Source of the DNA: G963667425 sp963667425 [NCBI: bacterium]
Lineage (GTDB): Bacteria; UBP6; UBA1177
Direction: 5' to 3'
Length of the DNA: 64,000 nt
NCBI GenBank assembly: GCA_963667425.1
Contig: OY763407.1
Location: 2,604,001-2,668,000 of the forward strand
Part shown: in pieces, positions 6,576-63,745 of the stretch
How positions within the stretch are numbered: position 1 is the stretch's first letter
Layout: each line of letters begins with the position of its first letter
Program-made: the position numbers and the translations under genes
The notes under the pieces: generated by a model
Seen by the model: only the letters and a program-made list of their open reading frames with translations
Told to the model about the DNA's origin: nothing
Database searches by the model: none

Positions 6576-7535
6576 GTGAAAATTAAACTTATTATAGGTT
6601 TTACTGTAACTGTAATTGCTTTTGTTATTCTATTTTCCAAAGTCGATTTTGAGATGTTTAAACACAGTTTTACTGGTATTGATTATCATTTAATAATTCC
6701 AGCTGTTTTTGTCTATTTTTCAACTCTTTTTATAAGAGGTCTGAGGTGGAAACTTCTTGTTGCAGGTTTTGCAAAAATATCTTTTAAAAGTTCTGCCGGA
6801 ATGGTCGTTTCAGGTTATGCATTAAACAATGTTTTTCCTGCGAGGGCAGGTGATATAACAAGGGCATATGTAACTTCAAAAGAAGGCAAATGTTCTAAAA
6901 CATCGTCTCTAGCCGCCATTTTTGCTGAAAAAGTTTTTGACGGATTTTCAATTGTGACAATACTTTTCTCTCTACTTTTATTTTTCCCTTCTCCTCCAGT
7001 TATTAAATCTATTTCGGTCGTTGCAGGAATTTGTTTTCTAGTTCTTTTTTTCTTTATTATAACAGCATCATTTTCGGACATTCCTTTCAGATTTCTGAAT
7101 TTACTGGAATCAGTATTTCCTGATTTTATGAAACCGCTTTTTGTTCTTGGAAGAAAATTTTTTAATGGAGTTTCTTCGTTAAATGGAATAGGTGCGGTTT
7201 TGCATGTTTTTGTGCTTTCCTTTTCAATATGGTTTCTTGAAGCTATAGTTTACTTTCTTGCGGTGACAGCATCCGGACATACGCTTCCTTTTGATGCGGT
7301 TTTATATGCACTTGTTGCAGTGAATCTTGCTATGCTGATTCCTTCAACTCCAGGAGGCCTTGGTGTTTTTCAATTTGCAGTTGTAAGCACTTTGGGTTTT
7401 TTTGGTATGGAATCTAATTCTGCGCTTGCGATTTCCTTTGTTATACATGCAATTCAGCTTATTCCTGTGACAATAATAGGCTTTATATGGATTAATTTAA
7501 GTCATTTAAAACCCGGAGAATTAAAAAATGGCTGA
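6576..7535 (+). CDS. Lysylphosphatidylglycerol synthase TM-region-like (UPF0104) membrane protein
   Basis: A 319-residue protein with about eight hydrophobic segments. Family marks are FIRGLRWKLL near residue 50, the loop NNVFPARAGDITRAY near residues 90-105, and the late PSTPGGLGVFQF motif. This is the lysylphosphatidylglycerol-synthetase TM domain (AglD/UPF0104), which occurs alone as a putative lipid-carrier transporter. No soluble MprF catalytic domain is present. Start is GTG at 6576 after a weak TGAGG. Its last 8 bases overlap the radical SAM gene, indicating translational coupling. Confidence 0.8.
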   Translation: MKIKLIIGFTVTVIAFVILFSKVDFEMFKHSFTGIDYHLIIPAVFVYFSTLFIRGLRWKLLVAGFAKISFKSSAGMVVSGYALNNVFPARAGDITRAYVTSKEGKCSKTSSLAAIFAEKVFDGFSIVTILFSLLLFFPSPPVIKSISVVAGICFLVLFFFIITASFSDIPFRFLNLLESVFPDFMKPLFVLGRKFFNGVSSLNGIGAVLHVFVLSFSIWFLEAIVYFLAVTASGHTLPFDAVLYALVAVNLAMLIPSTPGGLGVFQFAVVSTLGFFGMESNSALAISFVIHAIQLIPVTIIGFIWINLSHLKPGELKNG

Positions 7536-8463
7536 TTTCAAATATCTTTTTGGTCCTGTTCTCTCAAGAAGACTTGGAATTTCTCTAGGTGTGGATCTTA
7601 TTCCACACAAAACCTGTCCGCTTGATTGTATTTACTGTGAAGCTGGTAAGACAACCAACCATACTTTAAAAAGAGAAGTGTTTTACCCGGTTTCAGAAAT
7701 AATTTCTGAACTGAAAGCCTATCTTTTTTCTTTTCCAAAACTGGATTATATAACTTTTTCAGGTTCAGGTGAACCACTTTTATATTCAGGAATAGGTTCT
7801 GTTATAAAATGGATCAAAGAAAATTATTCTGACTATAAAATTGCACTTATAACTAATTCAATACTTTTAAAGGATGAATCTGTAATAGAAGAGATAATGG
7901 ATGTTGACCTTATTGTTCCGTCTCTTGATGCTGCCGATCAGGAAACATTTAAAAAAATAAACAGACCTGTTGAAGGACTTAATATAGAGGATGTACTTAA
8001 CGGGATGGAACTTTTTTTCAGTAAATATAAAGGTCAGACATGGATGGAAATATTTATTGCAGAAGGAATTAATGATTCTATTTATAGCCTTACAGAAATA
8101 AAAAAATGGATTATAAAATTTCCGCATGAAAAAATTCAGATAAATTCTCTTGATAGACCTGGAACAGATAAGATGCTCAAAAAAGCATCAATGGACACTC
8201 TTTTTAAAGTTAAGGAATTCTTTGGAGAAAAAGCTGAAATAGTTGTAAGAAGAGAAAAAAGAGAAAATCTCAATGTTCTGGATGACAATGCTGAAAAATC
8301 AATTCTAAAAAATATAAAAATAAGATCAATGACACTTAACGATCTTTCTTCAGTAACAGGAATTGAAGAAAAAGAACTTGATAAAATTCTTTCCATTCTT
8401 GAAAGTGAGAAAAAAATTACTGCCGGTCTGATAGATAATATAATATTTTATTCTATTGTCTGA
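7528..8463 (+). CDS. Radical SAM protein (COG0731-like)
   Basis: A 311-residue radical SAM enzyme. The 4Fe-4S motif is CPLDCIYCEAG (Cx3Cx2C) near residues 29-39. It is followed by the GSGEPLL motif (SAM amino-group binding) near residue 78. The N-terminal FGPVLSRRLGISLGVDLIP is typical of the COG0731 group, related to wyosine-synthesis enzymes but found widely in bacteria without known function. The C-terminal 70 residues resemble a small winged-helix domain. There is no SPASM cluster. It overlaps the membrane gene upstream by 8 bp. Confidence 0.82.
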   Translation: MADFKYLFGPVLSRRLGISLGVDLIPHKTCPLDCIYCEAGKTTNHTLKREVFYPVSEIISELKAYLFSFPKLDYITFSGSGEPLLYSGIGSVIKWIKENYSDYKIALITNSILLKDESVIEEIMDVDLIVPSLDAADQETFKKINRPVEGLNIEDVLNGMELFFSKYKGQTWMEIFIAEGINDSIYSLTEIKKWIIKFPHEKIQINSLDRPGTDKMLKKASMDTLFKVKEFFGEKAEIVVRREKRENLNVLDDNAEKSILKNIKIRSMTLNDLSSVTGIEEKELDKILSILESEKKITAGLIDNIIFYSIV

Positions 8464-21578: not shown

Positions 21579-22066
21579 CTTAACTTAACCTCTCCAGTTT
21601 CAACATCATATATTGAAATATTTGTAACCTTTGAATCTTCAATGTTCACAACTGCATAGCTCATATATCCTGCAAGACCTATTTTACCGAAAGATCCCGG
21701 ATTAAGATATATGACATCATTTATAACATTTATGCATGGCGTATGTGTATGACCATAAATTACAAGATCAGGAATGAACGATTCTATATACATTCGATTT
21801 TCATTAATAATTCTGTGAGGTGCCGTCAAATTATGAACCATAAATATTTTAACCCCTTCAACAGTTGTTCTCACTCTTTCAGGAAAGTTAAAAAACGAAA
21901 AACAGTCAGTGTTTCCCTGAACAATATAATAATTCTTAAAAAGCAGAGCCGCATTTACAATATTATGACCTCCAACGTCACCTGCATGAAATAAAATATC
22001 TCCGCCAATATCTTCAAGATCTTTAGGAAGACTTCCATGTGTGTCAGAAATCACAAGAACTTTCAA
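21566..22066 (-). CDS. YfcE/MJ0936-type metallophosphoesterase
   Basis: A 166-residue calcineurin-like phosphoesterase. All five metal-binding blocks are visible: SDTHGS (7-12), HAGDVGG (about 27), QGNTDC (about 50), VHNLTAP (about 78) and YGHTHTP (about 104). Family members hydrolyse phosphodiesters with two metals. The start codon is TTG at 22066, with GGAGAG upstream. It is the first gene of a leftward operon continuing to 18266. Confidence 0.9.
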   Translation of the reverse strand: MKVLVISDTHGSLPKDLEDIGGDILFHAGDVGGHNIVNAALLFKNYYIVQGNTDCFSFFNFPERVRTTVEGVKIFMVHNLTAPHRIINENRMYIESFIPDLVIYGHTHTPCINVINDVIYLNPGSFGKIGLAGYMSYAVVNIEDSKVTNISIYDVETGEVKLSWVT

Positions 22067-22132
22067 AACTCAACTCTCCGCTGCAAAATTGTATTTCAAA
22101 TAAAATATCATTTTTTTCAACTAAATCAACTA

Positions 22133-22903
22133 TTACCATGAAAAAAGGTTTTTTCTGTTTATTTCACCTCCCACATAGGTTAGAAGTGAATAAATATTGT
22201 CAGTTTCATTAGAAAGCCTGGCAGTATTTATTTCTCTTGAAAAATTACCATAAGAAAAGTGTTTAAAACAGAAAAGACGTTTTCTTTTATTAGTAAAAGA
22301 GAGATTGGAACCATAAATCTCTTTAATTTCATTATAAAAAGCTTCAAAAAGTCCTTTTTTTCTTAAATTGGAACAACCTACAAGCCACAAATCAGAATCT
22401 GAAAGATAATGAATATCAGCAATAATGCGAGCCATAAAACGTTGTGACTCGTAAAGGATTGAAGAAATTCCTTTAAGCTCTTTTAAATCACCTGTAGAAG
22501 GGGTATGAATTGGAGTTTTATTTAAAACAAGCACTTCTTTGTCAAAATCAGAAACAAGATTATGTTGAGCAAAAAAATTCCTCATAATCTTTCCTGATTT
22601 GCCTATAAGATATCTGGAGTTTTCTTCTTTCTGTTCTTCCATTCCGGGATTATCTGCAACAACAATATATTTAATGTTTTCAATATAAAGTTTTTCTATA
22701 TCTCTATTAAAAACAACATAGTTATCAACCACATAATCTCTGTTTGACTCTGATATAAAGTCCGTAATAGCTTTTTTTACAGATAAATCCTCATTCCAGT
22801 TTTGACAAGCTGATTTATAATCAGTTTTAATCTGTTCAAAAGCTTTCTTTTTTGTTGTATAAAGATTCGCAGCGTTTTCTACAGAAGGCAAAACATTCCT
22901 CAT
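22133..22903 (-). CDS. Uracil-DNA glycosylase-superfamily protein
   Basis: About 256 residues. VVADNPGMEEQKEENSRYLIGKSGKIM fits UDG motif 1 (GxxPGxxExxx followed by GxSGK); the segment NKTPIHTP is an Asn-containing strand; FKHFSYGNFSREI is in the place of the HPS-type motif 2. The family removes uracil or related lesions. Divergent: the canonical 4Fe-4S cysteines of family 4/5 are missing. The start at 22903 (ATG AGG AAT) is chosen because the longer ORF to 22954 starts with a hydrophobic run without a ribosome site, and a TATAAT lies between the two. Confidence 0.6.
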   Translation of the reverse strand: MRNVLPSVENAANLYTTKKKAFEQIKTDYKSACQNWNEDLSVKKAITDFISESNRDYVVDNYVVFNRDIEKLYIENIKYIVVADNPGMEEQKEENSRYLIGKSGKIMRNFFAQHNLVSDFDKEVLVLNKTPIHTPSTGDLKELKGISSILYESQRFMARIIADIHYLSDSDLWLVGCSNLRKKGLFEAFYNEIKEIYGSNLSFTNKRKRLFCFKHFSYGNFSREINTARLSNETDNIYSLLTYVGGEINRKNLFSW

Positions 22904-23013
22904 AAAAAAATCTTTACGATTATATCCGATGAAACAGGAAAGTAAAAAAATCATTTAAAAAGAATAAAAAAACGAACAAAAAAGAGGGATTATATTTTTT
23001 TAGAAATAAAAAA

Positions 23014-23100
23014 CTAACAGATAGATCTTCCGGCACAGTACTGACAATCATTGTTTGAAGTAGTTGTTTCTGTAGTTGTTTTTATTATTTCAGGTTTCAT
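23014..23100 (-). CDS. 28-residue Thr-rich, Cys-tailed peptide
   Basis: A short ORF ATG(23100)-TAG(23014) encoding a Thr-rich leader-like half (MKPEIIKTTTETTTSNND) and a Cys tail CQYCAGRSIC. GAGG lies 5 bp before the ATG. A near-consensus promoter (TTGACA 23156-23161, TAAACT 23134-23139, spacing 16) lies just upstream. No hydrophobic signal is seen, so it is cytosolic unless exported by a dedicated system. CxxC plus a terminal Cys could bind metal or be a modification substrate. No maturase or exporter is adjacent. It matches no family I know; expression is inferred only from the promoter and ribosome site. Confidence 0.5.
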   Translation of the reverse strand: MKPEIIKTTTETTTSNNDCQYCAGRSIC

Positions 23101-23133
23101 AATGAACCTCATTAAAAGTTAATAACACAATAG

Positions 23134-23161
23134 AGTTTAGCACTATAGTTCATAATGTCAA
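23134..23161 (-). promoter_or_regulatory. Promoter of the 28-residue peptide gene
   Basis: On the minus strand TTGACA (23161-23156), 16 bp spacer, TAAACT (23139-23134), 34 bp before the ATG. Confidence 0.6.
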
Positions 23162-23220
23162 TATATAATTTGATGAATTTAATATCTTTTTCATTGTTAT
23201 CTCATAAATGTTTGCCGGTA

Positions 23221-23247
23221 AACGACGCCCATAGGGGCGTCGCTACA
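23221..23247. repeat. REP-like palindrome, copy 1
   Basis: Exact 27-bp match to the copy at 24873-24899. The core is GACGCCC-ATAG-GGGCGTC, an 8-bp GC stem when the flanking C and G are included, in AT-rich surroundings. It lies exactly 7 bp beyond the stop codon of the 23255-24847 gene, with no T-run after it. Confidence 0.9.
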
Positions 23248-23254
23248 CAATAAT

Positions 23255-24847
23255 TTATTTGCATTCATGTTCGCCTGTTTTTATGTTTTTCGGGCACGCA
23301 GGATTTGGAGTGTAGTCATCATAAGGGCAGATTTCAGGGTGCAGGTCGCAGTAACACTCCATATCTCTTAAATGTAGTTCAGGGTTGCCGGGTAACTGCC
23401 ATGCTATGTAGTGTCCATCAAACTCTGCGTATGCTCCAAAAGCCCTGTCTCCATCTGCCGGGCAGTAACTCTTTTCCTGATCTATCCTATACATGCAGAC
23501 TATATTATTCTGTCTGTCTCTGTTACCATCAGGCCATATTATATTTTCATAAACTATGTAGTTCCCTTTGACTTGAGCGATAACTACATCATAAGTATCA
23601 GTGTAAGATTTAGTTACAGTAAACTTTTTATATTCCCACGGCTCTTTGGATGTATCTAACCTCATAAATCCATCTGTCATCTCTACCAGTGAAAAGTATA
23701 TTAGATTTTTATTTTCTGTATCCATCCATGACTGTCTTATCTTTTCCATTTTCCCATCAATGGTTCTGTTAATAAGTTTGCATTCATCAAGTGACTTGGG
23801 TTCTTTGTCAAGTTCGCAGATGTATCCTTTAAACCCATCAGCGTAAAATACAAGCCTGCCATCAACTATGTTTGGGTCGTTTGCTATTCCTTCGCCTAAG
23901 TTTATCCAGTTCCATGCTATGTTTTCATAGTTTGCAGTTCCATCATGCTCTTTAACTGCTGCATATTTCATATAGATTGAAGAGCCGTCTCTCTCTTCTA
24001 TGTTTGCAAATGCCCATTTATCTGTTATTACCGGTGTATATGCTACAAATCTTACTGTTTCCGGATAGATTGCTCTGTAAGTTCCATTGGAGTAGTAGGT
24101 TATTAAATGTTTTACTGTATCTTTTATTTTTATGTATGTTAAAAATTTTCCTTTGTTATATGCAAGCATATCTCCACTAGTCAGACTTTTAACACTGTAT
24201 TTTTTTGTTGTAACATCATATTCAAATGCTTTCACGCTGTTTACATGTTTTGTAAAAGTGCTTTGAACATGATGCATTGGAAAACCTATCTTTCCATCCT
24301 GAAAGTTAAAACTTTTCATTGTATAGTACCCTGTGTTCCAGCCGTAAGGATTAATTGCATTTAAAGCAATGTCACATTTCATAACTGTTGGAGAGTCTGT
24401 TCCTTCTCCTTTGTAGGTTGGAATTAAATTATTCAGATCACATGGATAGTTGCAGCAGTCATATTCAGGATAGTTTTTGCAGAAATATTCATTATCCTCT
24501 TTCCAGAGATTGCTTAGGCATTGCGGATCGCTTGCAGTTGGCGCATCACATCCTTCACGGCAGAAGTGAAGGTTCCCTTTGTCATCTTTAAATGGAAGTA
24601 AAGAATAGTCTATCACCTTAGCGCAGATGTCATCTGTATCAGGTTGCTCATCTTCATCCTGCACTGTGTCAATATCTGTGATGTCTTCATCTTTTGATGC
24701 ATCTTCATCAGACTTTTCAGTGTCAATGTCTGTAATAATATCAGCATCAGTGATAATATCTCCGTCTGTTTTTGCTTTATCTTTGTCACAGCTAGTTATT
24801 GAAAAAACAAATAATGTTAAAAAGCTTAAAAGAATTATTCTTTTCAT
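23255..24847 (-). CDS. Asp-stalk lipoprotein with Cys-rich segment and propeller-like body
   Basis: A 530-residue predicted lipoprotein. Lipobox ITSC at Cys 20, then an acidic stalk (DGDIITDADIITDIDTEKSD and similar) to about residue 75. A Cys-rich block (CREGCDAPTA, CKNYPEYDCCNYPC) follows, then about 350 residues of repeated short beta-strands (NKGKFLTYIK, VDGRLVFYADG, VKGNYIVYEN, FDGHYIAWQLPG) like a beta-propeller. It ends with another Cys cluster (CYCDLHPEICPYDD ... CPKN ... ECK). Function unknown. It starts about 25 bp after the second palindrome, downstream of the protease gene, so the two may share a transcript. Confidence 0.75.
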   Translation of the reverse strand: MKRIILLSFLTLFVFSITSCDKDKAKTDGDIITDADIITDIDTEKSDEDASKDEDITDIDTVQDEDEQPDTDDICAKVIDYSLLPFKDDKGNLHFCREGCDAPTASDPQCLSNLWKEDNEYFCKNYPEYDCCNYPCDLNNLIPTYKGEGTDSPTVMKCDIALNAINPYGWNTGYYTMKSFNFQDGKIGFPMHHVQSTFTKHVNSVKAFEYDVTTKKYSVKSLTSGDMLAYNKGKFLTYIKIKDTVKHLITYYSNGTYRAIYPETVRFVAYTPVITDKWAFANIEERDGSSIYMKYAAVKEHDGTANYENIAWNWINLGEGIANDPNIVDGRLVFYADGFKGYICELDKEPKSLDECKLINRTIDGKMEKIRQSWMDTENKNLIYFSLVEMTDGFMRLDTSKEPWEYKKFTVTKSYTDTYDVVIAQVKGNYIVYENIIWPDGNRDRQNNIVCMYRIDQEKSYCPADGDRAFGAYAEFDGHYIAWQLPGNPELHLRDMECYCDLHPEICPYDDYTPNPACPKNIKTGEHECK

Positions 24848-24872
24848 TTGTAATCCCTCAAACGGCGTAGCA

Positions 24873-24899
24873 AACGACGCCCATAGGGGCGTCGCTACA
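24873..24899. repeat. REP-like palindrome, copy 2
   Basis: Exact 27-bp copy of 23221-23247. It lies 7 bp beyond the stop codon of the 24907-29799 protease gene, the same spacing as copy 1, and between the protease gene and the next gene of the pair. Confidence 0.9.
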
Positions 24900-24906
24900 G
24901 GTTAAT

Positions 24907-27900
24907 TTACTTTGATTCATGGAGTTTGCCTGAGAATACCTGATATATTACTCCATTGTAGTAGTATGCTTCTCTCATGTAGTTCTTTTCTCCGCTCATT
25001 TTCTTAAGGCTTAATGAGCCGTTACTGTTTACTGCTTTGTACTGTCCGTTCTTGCAGCCCATGTATACTTCGCCTCCGCTTACTGTAAGCTCAGGGTCAT
25101 TGCATTCTTTCTTTTCTTCATCTTTCTTTACCGGATTGAGTATATCACTTATGTCGTAAAGTGCCAGCTTTCCTGTTTTGAATAGCTTGTCATGATAGAT
25201 GTAAATATAGTTTCCACCTGTTTCTATATCTTTTACCGGATAGTCTACACTTATGGTTTTTACTTTTTTGGGGTTTTCCAGAGTGCTTATGTCCCATATT
25301 GTAACTTTTTTGTTTTCTCCGGCTATTAAATAGCTTCCGTGTATTCTTATGTTGTCACAGTCTTTGGTTGAAAGGGCGTTCTTTCCGCTGAGGCTTCCAT
25401 CACTTTCTATTTTGAGGATTTCTATTTTGTTGCCTCCTGCTCCATAGAGGTAGTTGTCTTTTACTGCTATGTTGTTGATGTTCCCTAACCAGTGGAGTTT
25501 TTCTTTGCTGAGGTCTCCGTCTTCTTCTATTGTTATTTCTCTTATTCCGCTGAGTCCTCCAAGGTAGAGATGGTTGTTCCAGCCTGCTACTGTCTTTTTA
25601 TAGTCAAAGTATGTGTGGCTGTCATAGTTGTATTTTGAGAGTTTTGTGCACTCTCCTTCTTTAAGGATTCCGGGATATATTTTGCTTCCTGTGTCGTATA
25701 TGCAGTAATTTTCTTCGTAGACTATGCTGCTTGTCCATCCTTCAACTGCTGTTTCTGCTGTTGTTATTTCTCCGTTTGTAAGGTTTACTTCTGTTCTTAG
25801 CGCATTGCCTTCACTGTTTATCTGTTTGCTGAAGAGTATGGCTTTTTCTGCTGTGGCCGAGATAAAGAGGTTGAATATTCCGTCTTCAGGGAGTGAATCT
25901 GTGATTTGGTTAAATCCTGTTTCTTCTGTGTACTGCCATAGATCTGTTTTAGGTGCTATGCCGTACTTTTCAGAAGTATAGTTTCCGCCTCCTGCTATGT
26001 AGAGCGCTCCATTTACTACGCTGTAGTTTATTCTATCTCTTATTGCCGGTGCATTTGAACTGCTTACTTTTTCAAACTGATTTTCTGATGAGAGTTTGTA
26101 GAGTTCCATTACACTTGAGCCGTTTCCAAGTAGGTAGAGGCTTTCATTTATGTTTATAAGGGTCGGGTTGGTTACTGTCGGGAGCGCTGCTGCATAGTAG
26201 AGTTTGGCTGTATTTATTACTGCCTTACTTGCTGCGCTTACGCTGTTTGTTCCCACAGATTGCTGGATTATCATATCTGAACCCATGTAGTAGAGATTTG
26301 TTCCATCTGTAACATATGCTTTGTCTGCATAGGTTGCTGAGTATGGCTGAACCGAACCTGCTGAAACTACTGCCATTAGCTGCCAGTCACTTCTTTTAGT
26401 CCCTTCATTTATCCACATGTATAAGTAGTTGTCTGTTGCTCTGCTGAATTTATAAAGATCATTCCCCATTGTCATTACTGTGCCTTCAGGCTCCATTCTT
26501 ACTGTTTCTATTGAAACTGTATCCTGTAATGGCTGATATTTCCAAATGTTTATAAGGTCTCTGTTTATAAAGTCTTTAGCTCCGCAGAATGGGCAGACAT
26601 CTTTATCAAGACCGTAATCAGGATATGGATAGAGATATTTAAAGAAAAAGCGTGCGCTGGCTAATCCTTCTTTAATACCGTATCCTATTGCATTATATGA
26701 GGCTGATGATCTGTTTGCTCTGGCATAAGTGTGTAGATTGTAAAAATAGGCAGGTCTGACAGCATCTCCTATAAGATACGAGAAGTTATATTGACCTCTA
26801 TATCCTGCTGATGTTGTGTAGTAAAAGAATGGTTCCGGTTTTTCATTTCCTTCAATTCTCTTATAATTTACTATGTTTGTATTGTAAAGTCTTTCATTTT
26901 CACATCTTACATCTTCTTTCCAGTTCCATTTAATAGTTTCTCTGTTGTCCTCTTTTAAAGGAGGTTCAGCATTACTGTATGTTTCTCCTGTGTTGTCACA
27001 AGTTTTAGATGTTGATATCTCTTTCCATGATTCAATTCCAGTTTGTCTCATAGGGTACGGGTCGCTGCCGTGGCTGTATCCATAGTTTTGTGCAAAGAGC
27101 GGAATAAATGTATCCATATTATCAGGATATCTGTTTGTGCAGTATCCTGGTCTGCCCCAGTAATCAAGTATTGAATCATCAGCCCAACAAAAACGGTTAT
27201 TTATTTCTGTTGCTTTACTCTCTTTTGAGATTGTTGTTGCATTGTTAATTTTTATATACTGGTTTATATAAAAATCTCCCCAGCAGATTTCCATGCTGCT
27301 TGTTGTATTGCAATCTTTAACTCCTGCAAACTGATTTACAGTGCTTTGATTATTTTTTACATATTTGTAATCAGGGTCACATTTATCTCCTATTCCATCA
27401 AGATCGTGATCAGGCTGCCACATATACTTTTTATTCAATGAGAAAAATGGAAAGTTGTCATTACTTACAAAATAACCATGATCATAAGTATACTGATTAT
27501 AAATAGCTCCACCATCCATAGGATTTGTACAGATTTTGCCTTTCTCATTTTCAGGCTGACATTCTCCGCTTATAAGTTCATCTGCAAGTGAGGCTTCTTC
27601 ATAGGGGTTGTAAACTAGCGGGCAGTTATCGCACGCATCCCCTATCTTATCTGAGTCTGAATTTATCTGATCTGAATTTGGTGTAGTCGGACAGTTGTCA
27701 AAACTATCTCGTATTCCATCTTCATCACTATCTGTTTCATCATAATAGGTGTTTATGCTGAGTGAAGGGTCTCCATAAATGTTGTAGGCAAAACCATTCC
27801 TATAGTCCGGCCATAGCTCAACTATTGCATCATACCATGAAAACCCTACTGAATCATTTTTTATAAGAAGATTTCTAAGATATATCGTGGCTGTATCATT

Positions 27901-60682: not shown

Positions 60683-61006
60683 ATGGTGCAGCGGAAACGT
60701 TACAGTGCGGAAGAAAAGTTTCTGATACTGAAAGAAGCGGAAGAGCACGGTGTTGTAAAAACATGTGAAAGACACGGAGTGGATCCTACGACCTATTATG
60801 TGTGGAAAGAGAAGTACGAAGCTGAAGGGATAGCAGGATTACTTCCCATGAAAGCCGGAAGAATCGCTGAAGTTAAAGATATAAAAGGACTTGAGAAGGA
60901 AAATCGTATACTTAAGAAACTGCTTGCTGAGAAAGAAGTACTGATTGCGGCACAGCTTGAACTGATAAAAAAAAAGAGTTCACATCCGAAGAAAAGAGGG
61001 AGTTAG
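60683..61006 (+). CDS. IS3-family transposase OrfA
   Basis: 107 residues. An N-terminal helix-turn-helix (RYSAEEKFLILKEAEEHGVV, CERHGVDPTTYYVWKEKY) binds the terminal repeats, and a C-terminal leucine-zipper-like coiled coil (LEKENRILKKLLAEKEVLIAA) dimerises. ATG at 60683 after GAGGAGG; an in-frame ATG at 60632 lies within the element's end and is rejected. The run of nine A's at 60967-60975 is followed by G, giving an A-AAA-AAG slip site in the right register. A -1 slip there gives OrfAB. Confidence 0.92.
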   Translation: MVQRKRYSAEEKFLILKEAEEHGVVKTCERHGVDPTTYYVWKEKYEAEGIAGLLPMKAGRIAEVKDIKGLEKENRILKKLLAEKEVLIAAQLELIKKKSSHPKKRGS

Positions 61007-61902
61007 TGAATAAATACAGTTTTAAAAGAGGCAGAAAAGCAATGTGCAGTAAGCTTGATATCCCGCTATCCACATATAATTACAGGAATAAAGAAGGTAA
61101 AGCAGGCAGAAAACCGTCACTGTTTTCAATAAACTGTGAAGGGAACAGGATTCTTAACGAAGAAGTGGTTTCAAAAATAGAAAGCATAATAAATCATCAG
61201 TTTGCAGATTATGGCTATATAAAGATCTGCCACATACTGAGAAACAGATATGGAATAATAATCAACCGCAAGAAAGTATACCGTCTTATGAAAGAAGCGG
61301 GTTATCTTCAGAAACGCATCAGAGAAAAAGCAGAGAATCGTCAAAGAGTTGGAAGCTGGAAAGTAAACGTCAGCCGTCCGTTTGAAAAGATAGAGATAGA
61401 CATAAAGTACATATATGTAAAAGGCGAGCAGAGACACTATTATATGCTTAACCTGATAGACTGTTACAGCTGGAAACTGCTGTCATACAGATTATCAGGA
61501 AGTATAAGGAAAGAAGATGTGATAGATATGCTGAGAAAAGTGATTATACTTTACGGAAATCCCAGAGATATAATGCTTAGGAGCGATAACGGAAGCCAGT
61601 TTATATCAAAAGATATGGCGGACTTTATAGAAAAGACAATAAATATGAAACATGAGTTCTGTCACGTCAGAACGCCGCAGGAAAATGGATACGTGGAATG
61701 TTTTCACAGCATACTGCAGAGATTTATAGTAAAAAGAGAGGGTTTTGAAAGTTTCAGTGAGCTGGACAAAGTGATAAGAGCCTGGACAGAGTTTTATAAC
61801 GAGGAGAGGCCTCATAAGGGATGCGGTTACAGAACACCGTCAGATGTTATGAGCAGATATTATGAAAAAACTGGAAAAAATATTGGGAAAGTTACTGCTT
61901 GA
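61006..61902 (+). CDS. IS3-family transposase OrfB (DDE integrase)
   Basis: 298 residues from GTG at 61006, overlapping the orfA stop (TAGTG). The catalytic triad is visible: Asp in EKIEIDIKYIYV, Asp in MLRSDNGSQFIS, and Glu in QENGYVECFHSIL, with the RPHKGCGYRTPSDVM tail. The N-terminal HTH_21 domain (HQFADYGYIKICHILRNRYG) is present. Probably translated mostly as an OrfAB fusion: upstream of the GTG the frame is open back to the slip site and reads EFTSEEKRELV. Confidence 0.93.
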   Translation: MNKYSFKRGRKAMCSKLDIPLSTYNYRNKEGKAGRKPSLFSINCEGNRILNEEVVSKIESIINHQFADYGYIKICHILRNRYGIIINRKKVYRLMKEAGYLQKRIREKAENRQRVGSWKVNVSRPFEKIEIDIKYIYVKGEQRHYYMLNLIDCYSWKLLSYRLSGSIRKEDVIDMLRKVIILYGNPRDIMLRSDNGSQFISKDMADFIEKTINMKHEFCHVRTPQENGYVECFHSILQRFIVKREGFESFSELDKVIRAWTEFYNEERPHKGCGYRTPSDVMSRYYEKTGKNIGKVTA

Positions 61903-63097: not shown

Positions 63098-63745
63098 TTA
63101 TTTTCTCCTGTAGTTTTCCGCATTGTTTGCTTCTTTCTGAAATGTTTCAAAGAATTCTGCCGCATCTATTCCGTCTGCGAGTGAGTGGTGGAATTGTATT
63201 CCGTAGGGCAGCATTGTTTTTCCGTTTTCAGTTTTATATTTTCCCCAGACGAATCTTGGTACGGAGTCGTTTCTTAGTGATGTGAGCGGGTTTGTTATTG
63301 ATGTGAAGTTTATCCAGGGGAGTGCGCTTATGTAGGCGACGTCCTGTCTGGTTCCTGCTACGTGCAGCGATGGATTCTGCTCACATTTTTCTATTGCTTT
63401 TTTAAGGTTTTCACTGAATTTCTCAAAATCGGGATCGTATTTGCAGAATGTGTTTGAGTAGAGTCTGCTTCCTTTGGGAAGGTGGGTTGCTGCTGAATGG
63501 ATTGTGTCGTATTCTGTTATCTGGTCGTTTTCTATTCTCCATTTGAGTGCTGGAATAGCGTTTACTGCTTTTAGTGTTGAGTATAGTATGATTGCATGGA
63601 GCGATATTTTATTTTCTTTTGAGATTTTGAGTGCGTTTGTTATGTCTGCTGCAATTGTTATTGAGTATGTGGGGAGTTCAAGGTTTCTGAAGAAGAGGTA
63701 GTGTTCTTTTCTCTCCCATGTTTCAATGTTGATTATTTTTTTCAT
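63098..63745 (-). CDS. CatA-like O-acetyltransferase
   Basis: 215 residues of the chloramphenicol acetyltransferase type-A fold. RKEHYLFFRNLELPTYSITI opens it, LPWINFTSITNP is the acetyl-CoA/substrate segment, and GIQFHHSLADGIDAAEF has the catalytic HHxxxDG box. Bona fide resistance enzymes are close in length, but similar proteins of unknown acceptor are common in anaerobes. There is no mobile element or resistance context here other than the IS 1.1 kb away, so a drug-resistance call is not made. It is 12 bp after the truncated CBM25-type gene. Confidence 0.78.
   Translation of the reverse strand: MKKIINIETWERKEHYLFFRNLELPTYSITIAADITNALKISKENKISLHAIILYSTLKAVNAIPALKWRIENDQITEYDTIHSAATHLPKGSRLYSNTFCKYDPDFEKFSENLKKAIEKCEQNPSLHVAGTRQDVAYISALPWINFTSITNPLTSLRNDSVPRFVWGKYKTENGKTMLPYGIQFHHSLADGIDAAEFFETFQKEANNAENYRRK

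What the first reader, a model, noticed from the sequence alone, without database searches (positions are those of the whole stretch)
23014..23161. Orphan 28-residue Thr-rich peptide ending CQYCAGRSIC with its own promoter
The sequence shows TTGACA-16-TAAACT, GAGG and ATG spaced as for a real gene, in a 350-bp gap. A Thr-rich half followed by a Cys-dense tail is the shape of precursor or metal-binding peptides. I see no maturase or exporter near. This is my best candidate for something undescribed. Function is inference only.
Basis: partly seen in the sequence, partly recalled or inferred. Interest (0 to 1): 0.62.

Follow-up and report, generated by a model that had tools for sequence, protein, structure and literature searches.

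The report
Conserved cysteine-tailed peptide with radical-SAM partner
A tiny 28-residue gene in an uncultured bacterium proves to be a conserved peptide whose relatives occur together with an enzyme of the kind that chemically reshapes peptides and with an unusual leucine-rich-repeat lipoprotein, so it is most likely the raw material of an undescribed modified peptide.

Summary
The small gene is real. The 28-aa peptide (23014-23100, minus) has relatives in 6 of 28 whole genomes of the nearest phylum: window peptide alone, E 1.4e-6 to 7.1e-4, next hit 0.19. All seven end exactly in CQYCxG[KR]x[IV]C-stop. Among four close relatives dN/dS is 0-0.21. A promoter-like site recurs at nearly the same distance from the start.

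A full-length radical SAM/SPASM enzyme with an N-terminal RRE-like domain is in exactly the same 6 of 28 genomes: directly upstream of the peptide in 4, on another contig in 2. A lipoprotein of leucine-rich repeats lies next to the peptide in all 6, and its full-length form is in none of the other 22.

Neither partner is in this 64-kb window, and the window's own genome is not held, so the partners here are inferred. Best reading: precursor of a radical-SAM RiPP (thioether peptide or small cofactor), not found described in five literature searches. Its product, chemistry and the lipoprotein's role are unknown.

The parts
23014..23100 (-). Peptide gene, 28 codons plus stop: MKPEIIKTTTETTTSNNDCQYCAGRSIC
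   Evidence: ORF; relatives in 6 of 28 phylum genomes; alignment A1 with invariant P, I, CQYC, G, C-terminal C
23047..23100 (-). Leader-like N-terminal part (18 residues, MKPEIIKTTTETTTSNND), proposed to be bound by an RRE domain
   Evidence: Only P and I invariant, the rest variable and K/T/P/S-rich; leader role is inference
23017..23046 (-). Core-like C-terminal part CQYCAGRSIC, proposed site of modification
   Evidence: All seven family members end in CQYCxG[KR]x[IV]C directly before the stop
23107..23110 (-). GAGG ribosome-binding-like site, six bases before the ATG at 23100
   Evidence: Sequence; GAGG, GGAG or GGAGG type sites in the last 16 nt before the start in all seven members
23134..23161 (-). 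Promoter-like TTGACA-16-TAAACT with TG before the second hexamer
   Evidence: same position (33-37 nt before the start) in the window, G022 and G017-G020

Best explanation
The gene encodes the precursor of a ribosomally made, radical-SAM-modified peptide (RiPP or RiPP-derived cofactor). Shown by comparison: an ancient peptide family under purifying selection, with a fixed C-terminal CQYCxG[KR]x[IV]C, its own promoter-like site, and exact co-occurrence with one radical SAM/SPASM enzyme carrying an N-terminal RRE-like domain and with one LRR lipoprotein. Inferred: the RRE-like domain grips the N-terminal part (around KPxI); the radical SAM centre (CxxxCxxC) with two auxiliary Fe-S clusters in the SPASM domain links or rearranges the Cys-rich tail, most likely making thioether cross-links from one or more of the three cysteines, or less likely a compact PQQ/mycofactocin-like product; the product then acts at or outside the membrane with the LRR lipoprotein. 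In this organism the enzyme and lipoprotein must be encoded elsewhere in the chromosome, as the enzyme is in G022.
For: Window peptide alone finds 6 of 28 phylum genomes at E 1.4e-6 to 7.1e-4, next hit 0.19; a profile built from these seven finds the same six (E 1.4e-14 or better, partly by construction) and nothing else better than 0.02. All seven tails match CQYC.G[KR].[IV]C at the stop. dN/dS 0-0.21 in the 6 pairs of G017-G020; G018/G019 differ by 9 synonymous and 0 nonsynonymous changes. Enzyme: full-length matches (query 1-9 to 415-425 of 425) in exactly those 6 genomes; the 11 other genomes with a match align only from residue 79 or later. It is directly upstream on the same strand in G017, G018, G019, G020. 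Pfam Radical_SAM and SPASM above cut-off; 3 + 7 invariant cysteines in CxxxCxxC and CX12GX4C/CX2CX5CX2C/C positions. RRE-like: N-terminal profile hits TfuB1 at E 2.8e-4; full profile aligns with 5v1q from residue 7 on, E 5.6e-13. LRR lipoprotein: adjacent in all 6, full-length (E 2.1e-92 or better) only there; lipobox-like invariant GC. No gene other than the peptide is shared between the window's locus (five neighbours tested) and the eight relatives' loci, so the match is not mere synteny.
Against: Neither enzyme nor lipoprotein is in the window and the window's genome is not held, so the link is unproven in this organism; the peptide could be a relic. The six genomes are not independent: G017-G020 are one clade, and the label needs only about 3 changes on the ThrRS tree. 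Pfam PqqD never reaches its cut-off (best E 0.0047; 4 of 6 segments at E up to 1). Genomes are MAGs, so absences (e.g. in G023) may be gaps. In G015 peptide and enzyme lie on short contigs (4.9 and 4.0 kb), so their being apart is unsure there. No dedicated protease or exporter was recognised, but the flanks were not scanned systematically.
Confidence: 0.78

Rival explanations
1. Small redox or metal-binding peptide that acts unmodified: CxxC plus a C-terminal Cys binds a metal or does thiol chemistry.
For: CQYC and a third Cys fixed in 7 of 7; 3 of the 6 relatives-with-context or window cases have no enzyme beside the peptide (window, G022, G015).
Against: Exact co-occurrence with, and in four genomes adjacency to, an RRE-like radical SAM/SPASM enzyme; invariant Q, Y and G and a fixed C-terminus are more than a metal site needs (inference).
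Confidence: 0.1
2. Leader peptide (attenuator or uORF) controlling the downstream gene 22133-22954, for example by threonine supply because of TTTETTT.
For: Thr-rich run; the gene lies downstream on the same strand.
Against: The Thr run is not conserved. Relatives of the downstream gene occur in 10 of 11 genomes, none of which has the peptide, and the gene has no tblastn hit in the loci around the six relatives' peptides. The one terminator-like site in 22000-24500 is elsewhere (23979-23998).
Confidence: 0.04
3. The peptide in this window is a stranded remnant of the system, moved or left behind after loss of its partners.
For: Partners absent within 23 kb on one side and 41 kb on the other; whole system absent from G023 and the 17-genome clade; two 50-nt palindromic repeats flank the neighbouring gene.
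Against: All family-invariant residues, start, GAGG and promoter-like site are intact in the window copy. G022 keeps a conserved peptide with the enzyme on another contig.
Confidence: 0.1
4. Chance ORF.
For: It is short, and the promoter alone is within chance.
Against: Conserved in 6 of 28 genomes with purifying selection.
Confidence: 0.01

Closest known systems
Sactipeptide/ranthipeptide systems (SkfB, AlbA, PapB, SCIFF maturases)
   Same: Short Cys-containing precursor plus radical SAM/SPASM enzyme; best solved relative of the enzyme is SkfB, E 3.3e-30 over profile 104-369; two- or three-gene systems of this kind are common (PMC9062424, section 4 read).
   Different: No NCBIfam model shown reaches its cut-off: AlbA 75 of 850 bits, PapB 55 of 340 for the L105 copy (only the best 25 of 63 families are shown). 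Precursor tail CQYCxG[KR]x[IV]C has no Pfam or NCBIfam match. LRR lipoprotein partner and dispersed genes.
Mycofactocin and PQQ (MftC, PqqE with MftA/PqqA)
   Same: Short precursor, RRE/PqqD-type recognition, SPASM enzyme; mycofactocin maturase model aligns along the whole catalytic part (112-413, E 1.1e-29), PqqE 6c8v at E 5.6e-25. A fixed C-terminal residue recalls mycofactocin precursors (recalled).
   Different: Bits 104 against a cut-off of 265 for mycofactocin and 99 of 381 for PqqE (L105 copy). The tail is Cys-rich, not Val-Tyr or Glu-Tyr (recalled); no cofactor-pathway genes were recognised nearby (not searched systematically).
RRE domains (TfuB1 of lasso peptides; SuiB)
   Same: N-terminal 54-70 residues of the enzyme resemble TfuB1, E 2.8e-4, and the profile aligns with 5v1q (SuiB by recall) from residue 7 on.
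   Different: Below Pfam's PqqD cut-off; fold not modelled.

Membership tests
Radical-SAM RiPP system (general kind) | Short genetically encoded precursor | tested here: met
   28-31 aa ORFs in 7 genomes, conserved, dN/dS 0-0.21 among four
Radical-SAM RiPP system (general kind) | Cognate radical SAM/SPASM enzyme, linked or co-occurring | tested here: met
   6 of 6 genomes with peptide, 0 of 22 without; adjacent in 4. Not testable for the window's own genome
Radical-SAM RiPP system (general kind) | RRE domain for leader binding | tested here: inconclusive
   TfuB1 E 2.8e-4 but Pfam PqqD below cut-off; no structure model
Radical-SAM RiPP system (general kind) | A modified peptide product | not testable with these tools
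   Needs mass spectrometry
Sactipeptide/ranthipeptide | Cys thioether to an alpha or beta/gamma carbon | not testable with these tools
   Three fixed Cys are compatible; chemistry unknown
Sactipeptide/ranthipeptide | Maturase scoring as a named equivalog (AlbA, SkfB, StsB, PapB) | tested here: not met
   All far below curated cut-offs in the lists shown
Mycofactocin/PQQ | Maturase scoring as MftC or PqqE | tested here: not met
   98-104 bits against 265; 94-99 against 381 (three enzymes)
Mycofactocin/PQQ | Precursor ending in Val-Tyr or holding Glu-x3-Tyr (recalled) | tested here: not met
   Tail is CQYCxG[KR]x[IV]C in 7 of 7
Amino-acid attenuator leader peptide | Conserved run of the regulating residue before a terminator of a fixed downstream gene | tested here: not met
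   Thr run not conserved; downstream gene not shared; no terminator-like site in the interval

The most novel reading that the evidence does not exclude
A radical-SAM-modified signal or effector peptide with a dedicated partner: the LRR lipoprotein, conserved beside the peptide even where the enzyme is not (G022; probably G015), is the receptor, carrier or immunity protein for the mature CQYC peptide. It would be a bacterial modified-peptide/LRR pair, ancestral in an uncultured phylum and lost as a unit in its 17-genome clade.
Probability: 0.2. Interest if true: 0.8.

Novelty: new variant of a known kind. Interest (0 to 1): 0.6.

Why it matters
It turns an unannotated 28-codon ORF into a testable three-gene system. 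Such genes are easily missed, and here precursor and enzyme can sit apart on the chromosome, so searches that look only beside a maturase would miss it. An LRR lipoprotein as a constant neighbour of a radical-SAM precursor was not found in the one literature search I made for that pairing, and it offers a concrete partner for the product. The phylum appears to be known only from assembled environmental genomes, as far as the titles seen tell.

Tried and rejected
Relatives of the downstream gene by pattern scan: 60 pattern matches, none confirmed. It was then found in 10 of 11 genomes by whole-genome search. My first look for small ORFs upstream of it read the wrong strand for the three minus-strand hits (L081, L085, L089), so I do not use it; absence of the peptide from those genomes rests.

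Other phyla, with the family profile: 0 of 398, 0 of 392, 0 of 395 at E up to 0.001. These three calls held no positive control. In a mixed set of 23 genomes including G022 as control, G022 was found, and one other hit at E 0.0033 (G441). That hit lies out of frame inside a longer open frame, ends after CQYCL and lacks the tail; I read it as chance. Viral contigs: 51 pattern matches, none confirmed.

Fourth partner: the Asp-rich lipoprotein beside the enzyme in G017-G019 has full or near-full matches only in those three genomes. Not part of the system.

The radical SAM gene in the window (7528-8463) as maturase: no SPASM, no PqqD match, no tblastn similarity of use to the family enzyme. Another radical SAM gene 7.6 kb from the G022 peptide (L103:109-1065) matches the query enzyme only in its core.

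Literature: searches (1 paper; 0; the word UBP6; the 15 of 351 listed concern the deubiquitinase or proteasome, not the phylum; 11; CQYC anywhere: 223 papers, 10 listed, none on such a peptide by title). Seen: passages of PMC7470986; passages and section 4 of PMC9062424; the rest as listings only.

Full report
THE OBSERVATION. The start that fits GAGG and the relatives is 23100, giving 28 aa. The promoter alone is within chance.

WHERE THE WINDOW COMES FROM. No genome is held for it. Its threonyl-tRNA synthetase is 65-69% identical to most of the genomes in a 28-genome phylum group that contains a record titled 'bacterium UBP6_UBA1196' and several ruminant-gut MAGs; three members of the group (G012-G014) are only about 52% identical and one, G016, gave no hit. 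In a tree of this enzyme the window branches among them with moderate support (88/66).

CONSERVATION. The window peptide alone finds six of these 28 genomes at E 1.4e-6 (G022), 4.1e-5, 5.3e-5, 1.2e-4, 1.4e-4 and 7.1e-4 (G015), E-values being per genome; the next hit is 0.19. A profile of the seven finds the same six at 1.4e-14 or better, partly by construction, and nothing else better than 0.02. Invariant: P, I, CQYC, G and the C-terminal C. Seven of seven end CQYC.G[KR].[IV]C at the stop. Among the four close genomes dN/dS is 0, 0.15, 0.15, 0.17, 0.21, 0.21; G018 and G019 differ by nine synonymous and no nonsynonymous changes. The other three members are too divergent for such a test.

PROMOTER. 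The best promoter-like match lies 35-37 nt before the start in G017-G020 (TTGACT-17-TATACT; 0-4 of 500 shuffles as good), 35 nt in G022 (117 of 500), 33 nt in the window (53 of 500) and 24 nt in G015 (1 of 500). In G017-G020 it lies between enzyme and peptide, so the peptide probably has its own transcript.

THE ENZYME. In G017, G018, G019 and G020 the gene directly upstream on the same strand encodes a radical SAM/SPASM protein. Searched in the 28 genomes it has full-length matches in exactly the six peptide genomes: G019, G020, G017, G018 at E 1e-228 or better, G022 at 8.1e-84 and G015 at 2.8e-62. Eleven further genomes have a best match that covers only the radical SAM part (from residue 79 or later). 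In G022 the enzyme is on another contig, the peptide being 20 kb or more from either end of its own; in G015 both contigs are short, so the distance is unknown. All three CxxxCxxC and seven SPASM cysteines are invariant. The first 70 residues resemble RRE domains: TfuB1 at E 2.8e-4; Pfam PqqD only below cut-off, 4 of 6 segments, best 0.0047. Closest solved enzymes are SkfB (3.3e-30), PqqE (5.6e-25) and 5v1q (5.6e-13, aligned from residue 7 on; SuiB by recall). No NCBIfam model among the 25 shown per enzyme reaches its cut-off (59-63 families matched).

THE LRR LIPOPROTEIN. In all six relatives the gene on the peptide's other side encodes a lipoprotein-like LRR protein. Five are convergent, ending 3-8 bp from the peptide's stop, and in G015 it is on the same strand with the peptide frame starting at its stop codon. 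Its full-length form (E 2.1e-92 or better) is in those six genomes only; 27 of 28 genomes have some LRR match, the next best at 1.1e-20 and partial. Invariant cysteines: 24 (lipobox), 45, 90, 210, 233. It stays beside the peptide even in G022, where the enzyme does not.

THE WINDOW. No trace of enzyme or LRR gene in the 64 kb (best E 0.63 and 2.2). None of five window neighbours tested has a hit in the eight relatives' loci. The peptide is the only shared element, which speaks for function rather than inherited gene order. On the tree the peptide group needs about three changes, as by one old origin and losses in G023 and in the 17-genome clade; the enzyme and the LRR protein share this pattern. 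Because G017-G020 are one clade, the 6/28 match is worth fewer independent events than it looks.

HOW IT PROBABLY WORKS. Shown: conserved family, partner enzyme and lipoprotein, own promoter-like site. Inferred: N-terminal RRE-like domain binds the KPxI leader; the radical SAM/SPASM centre modifies the CQYC...C tail, most likely as thioethers; the product meets the LRR lipoprotein outside the cytoplasm. A PQQ/mycofactocin-like cofactor remains possible. I recognised no dedicated exporter or leader peptidase, but the flanks were read by eye and only chosen proteins were scanned; an S26-like peptidase gene lies about 7 kb from the G022 peptide.

RANGE. Not found in 1,185 genomes of three other phylum groups (no control in those calls) nor in viral contigs. 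Two of 23 genomes matched in a mixed set: the control and one hit read as chance.

NOVELTY. Radical-SAM RiPP systems with few genes are a known kind (PMC9062424, section 4; PMC7470986, passages). This precursor family, its enzyme subfamily and the LRR partner match no model shown, and five literature searches gave no description. I call it a new variant of a known kind.

Noticed in passing
window 23220-23269 and 24872-24921: Two 50-nt direct repeats (88% identical), each with the near-perfect palindrome CGACGCCCATAGGGGCGTCG, on either side of the lipoprotein gene 23255-24847. No exact match to the longer pattern in 201 fetched loci. Looks like a REP-type element.
   Followed up: partly
window 6576-8463: Flippase-like membrane protein gene followed by a radical SAM protein without SPASM match. 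Unrelated to the peptide as far as tested.
   Followed up: partly
window 22133-22954: Weak uracil-DNA-glycosylase-like gene (Pfam UDG E 0.022, below cut-off), conserved in 10 of 11 genomes searched, beside a metallophosphoesterase gene.
   Followed up: partly
L150:3343-3684: Small secreted-looking protein with YANQAD-type repeats just downstream of the G022 radical SAM enzyme.
   Followed up: no
window 61006-61902 and 63098-63745: IS3-type transposase above its NCBIfam cut-off, and a CatA-like acetyltransferase below cut-off.
   Followed up: no
L107:6230-7561, L106:8878-10236: Asp-rich lipoprotein gene divergent from the enzyme gene in G017-G019 only.
   Followed up: yes
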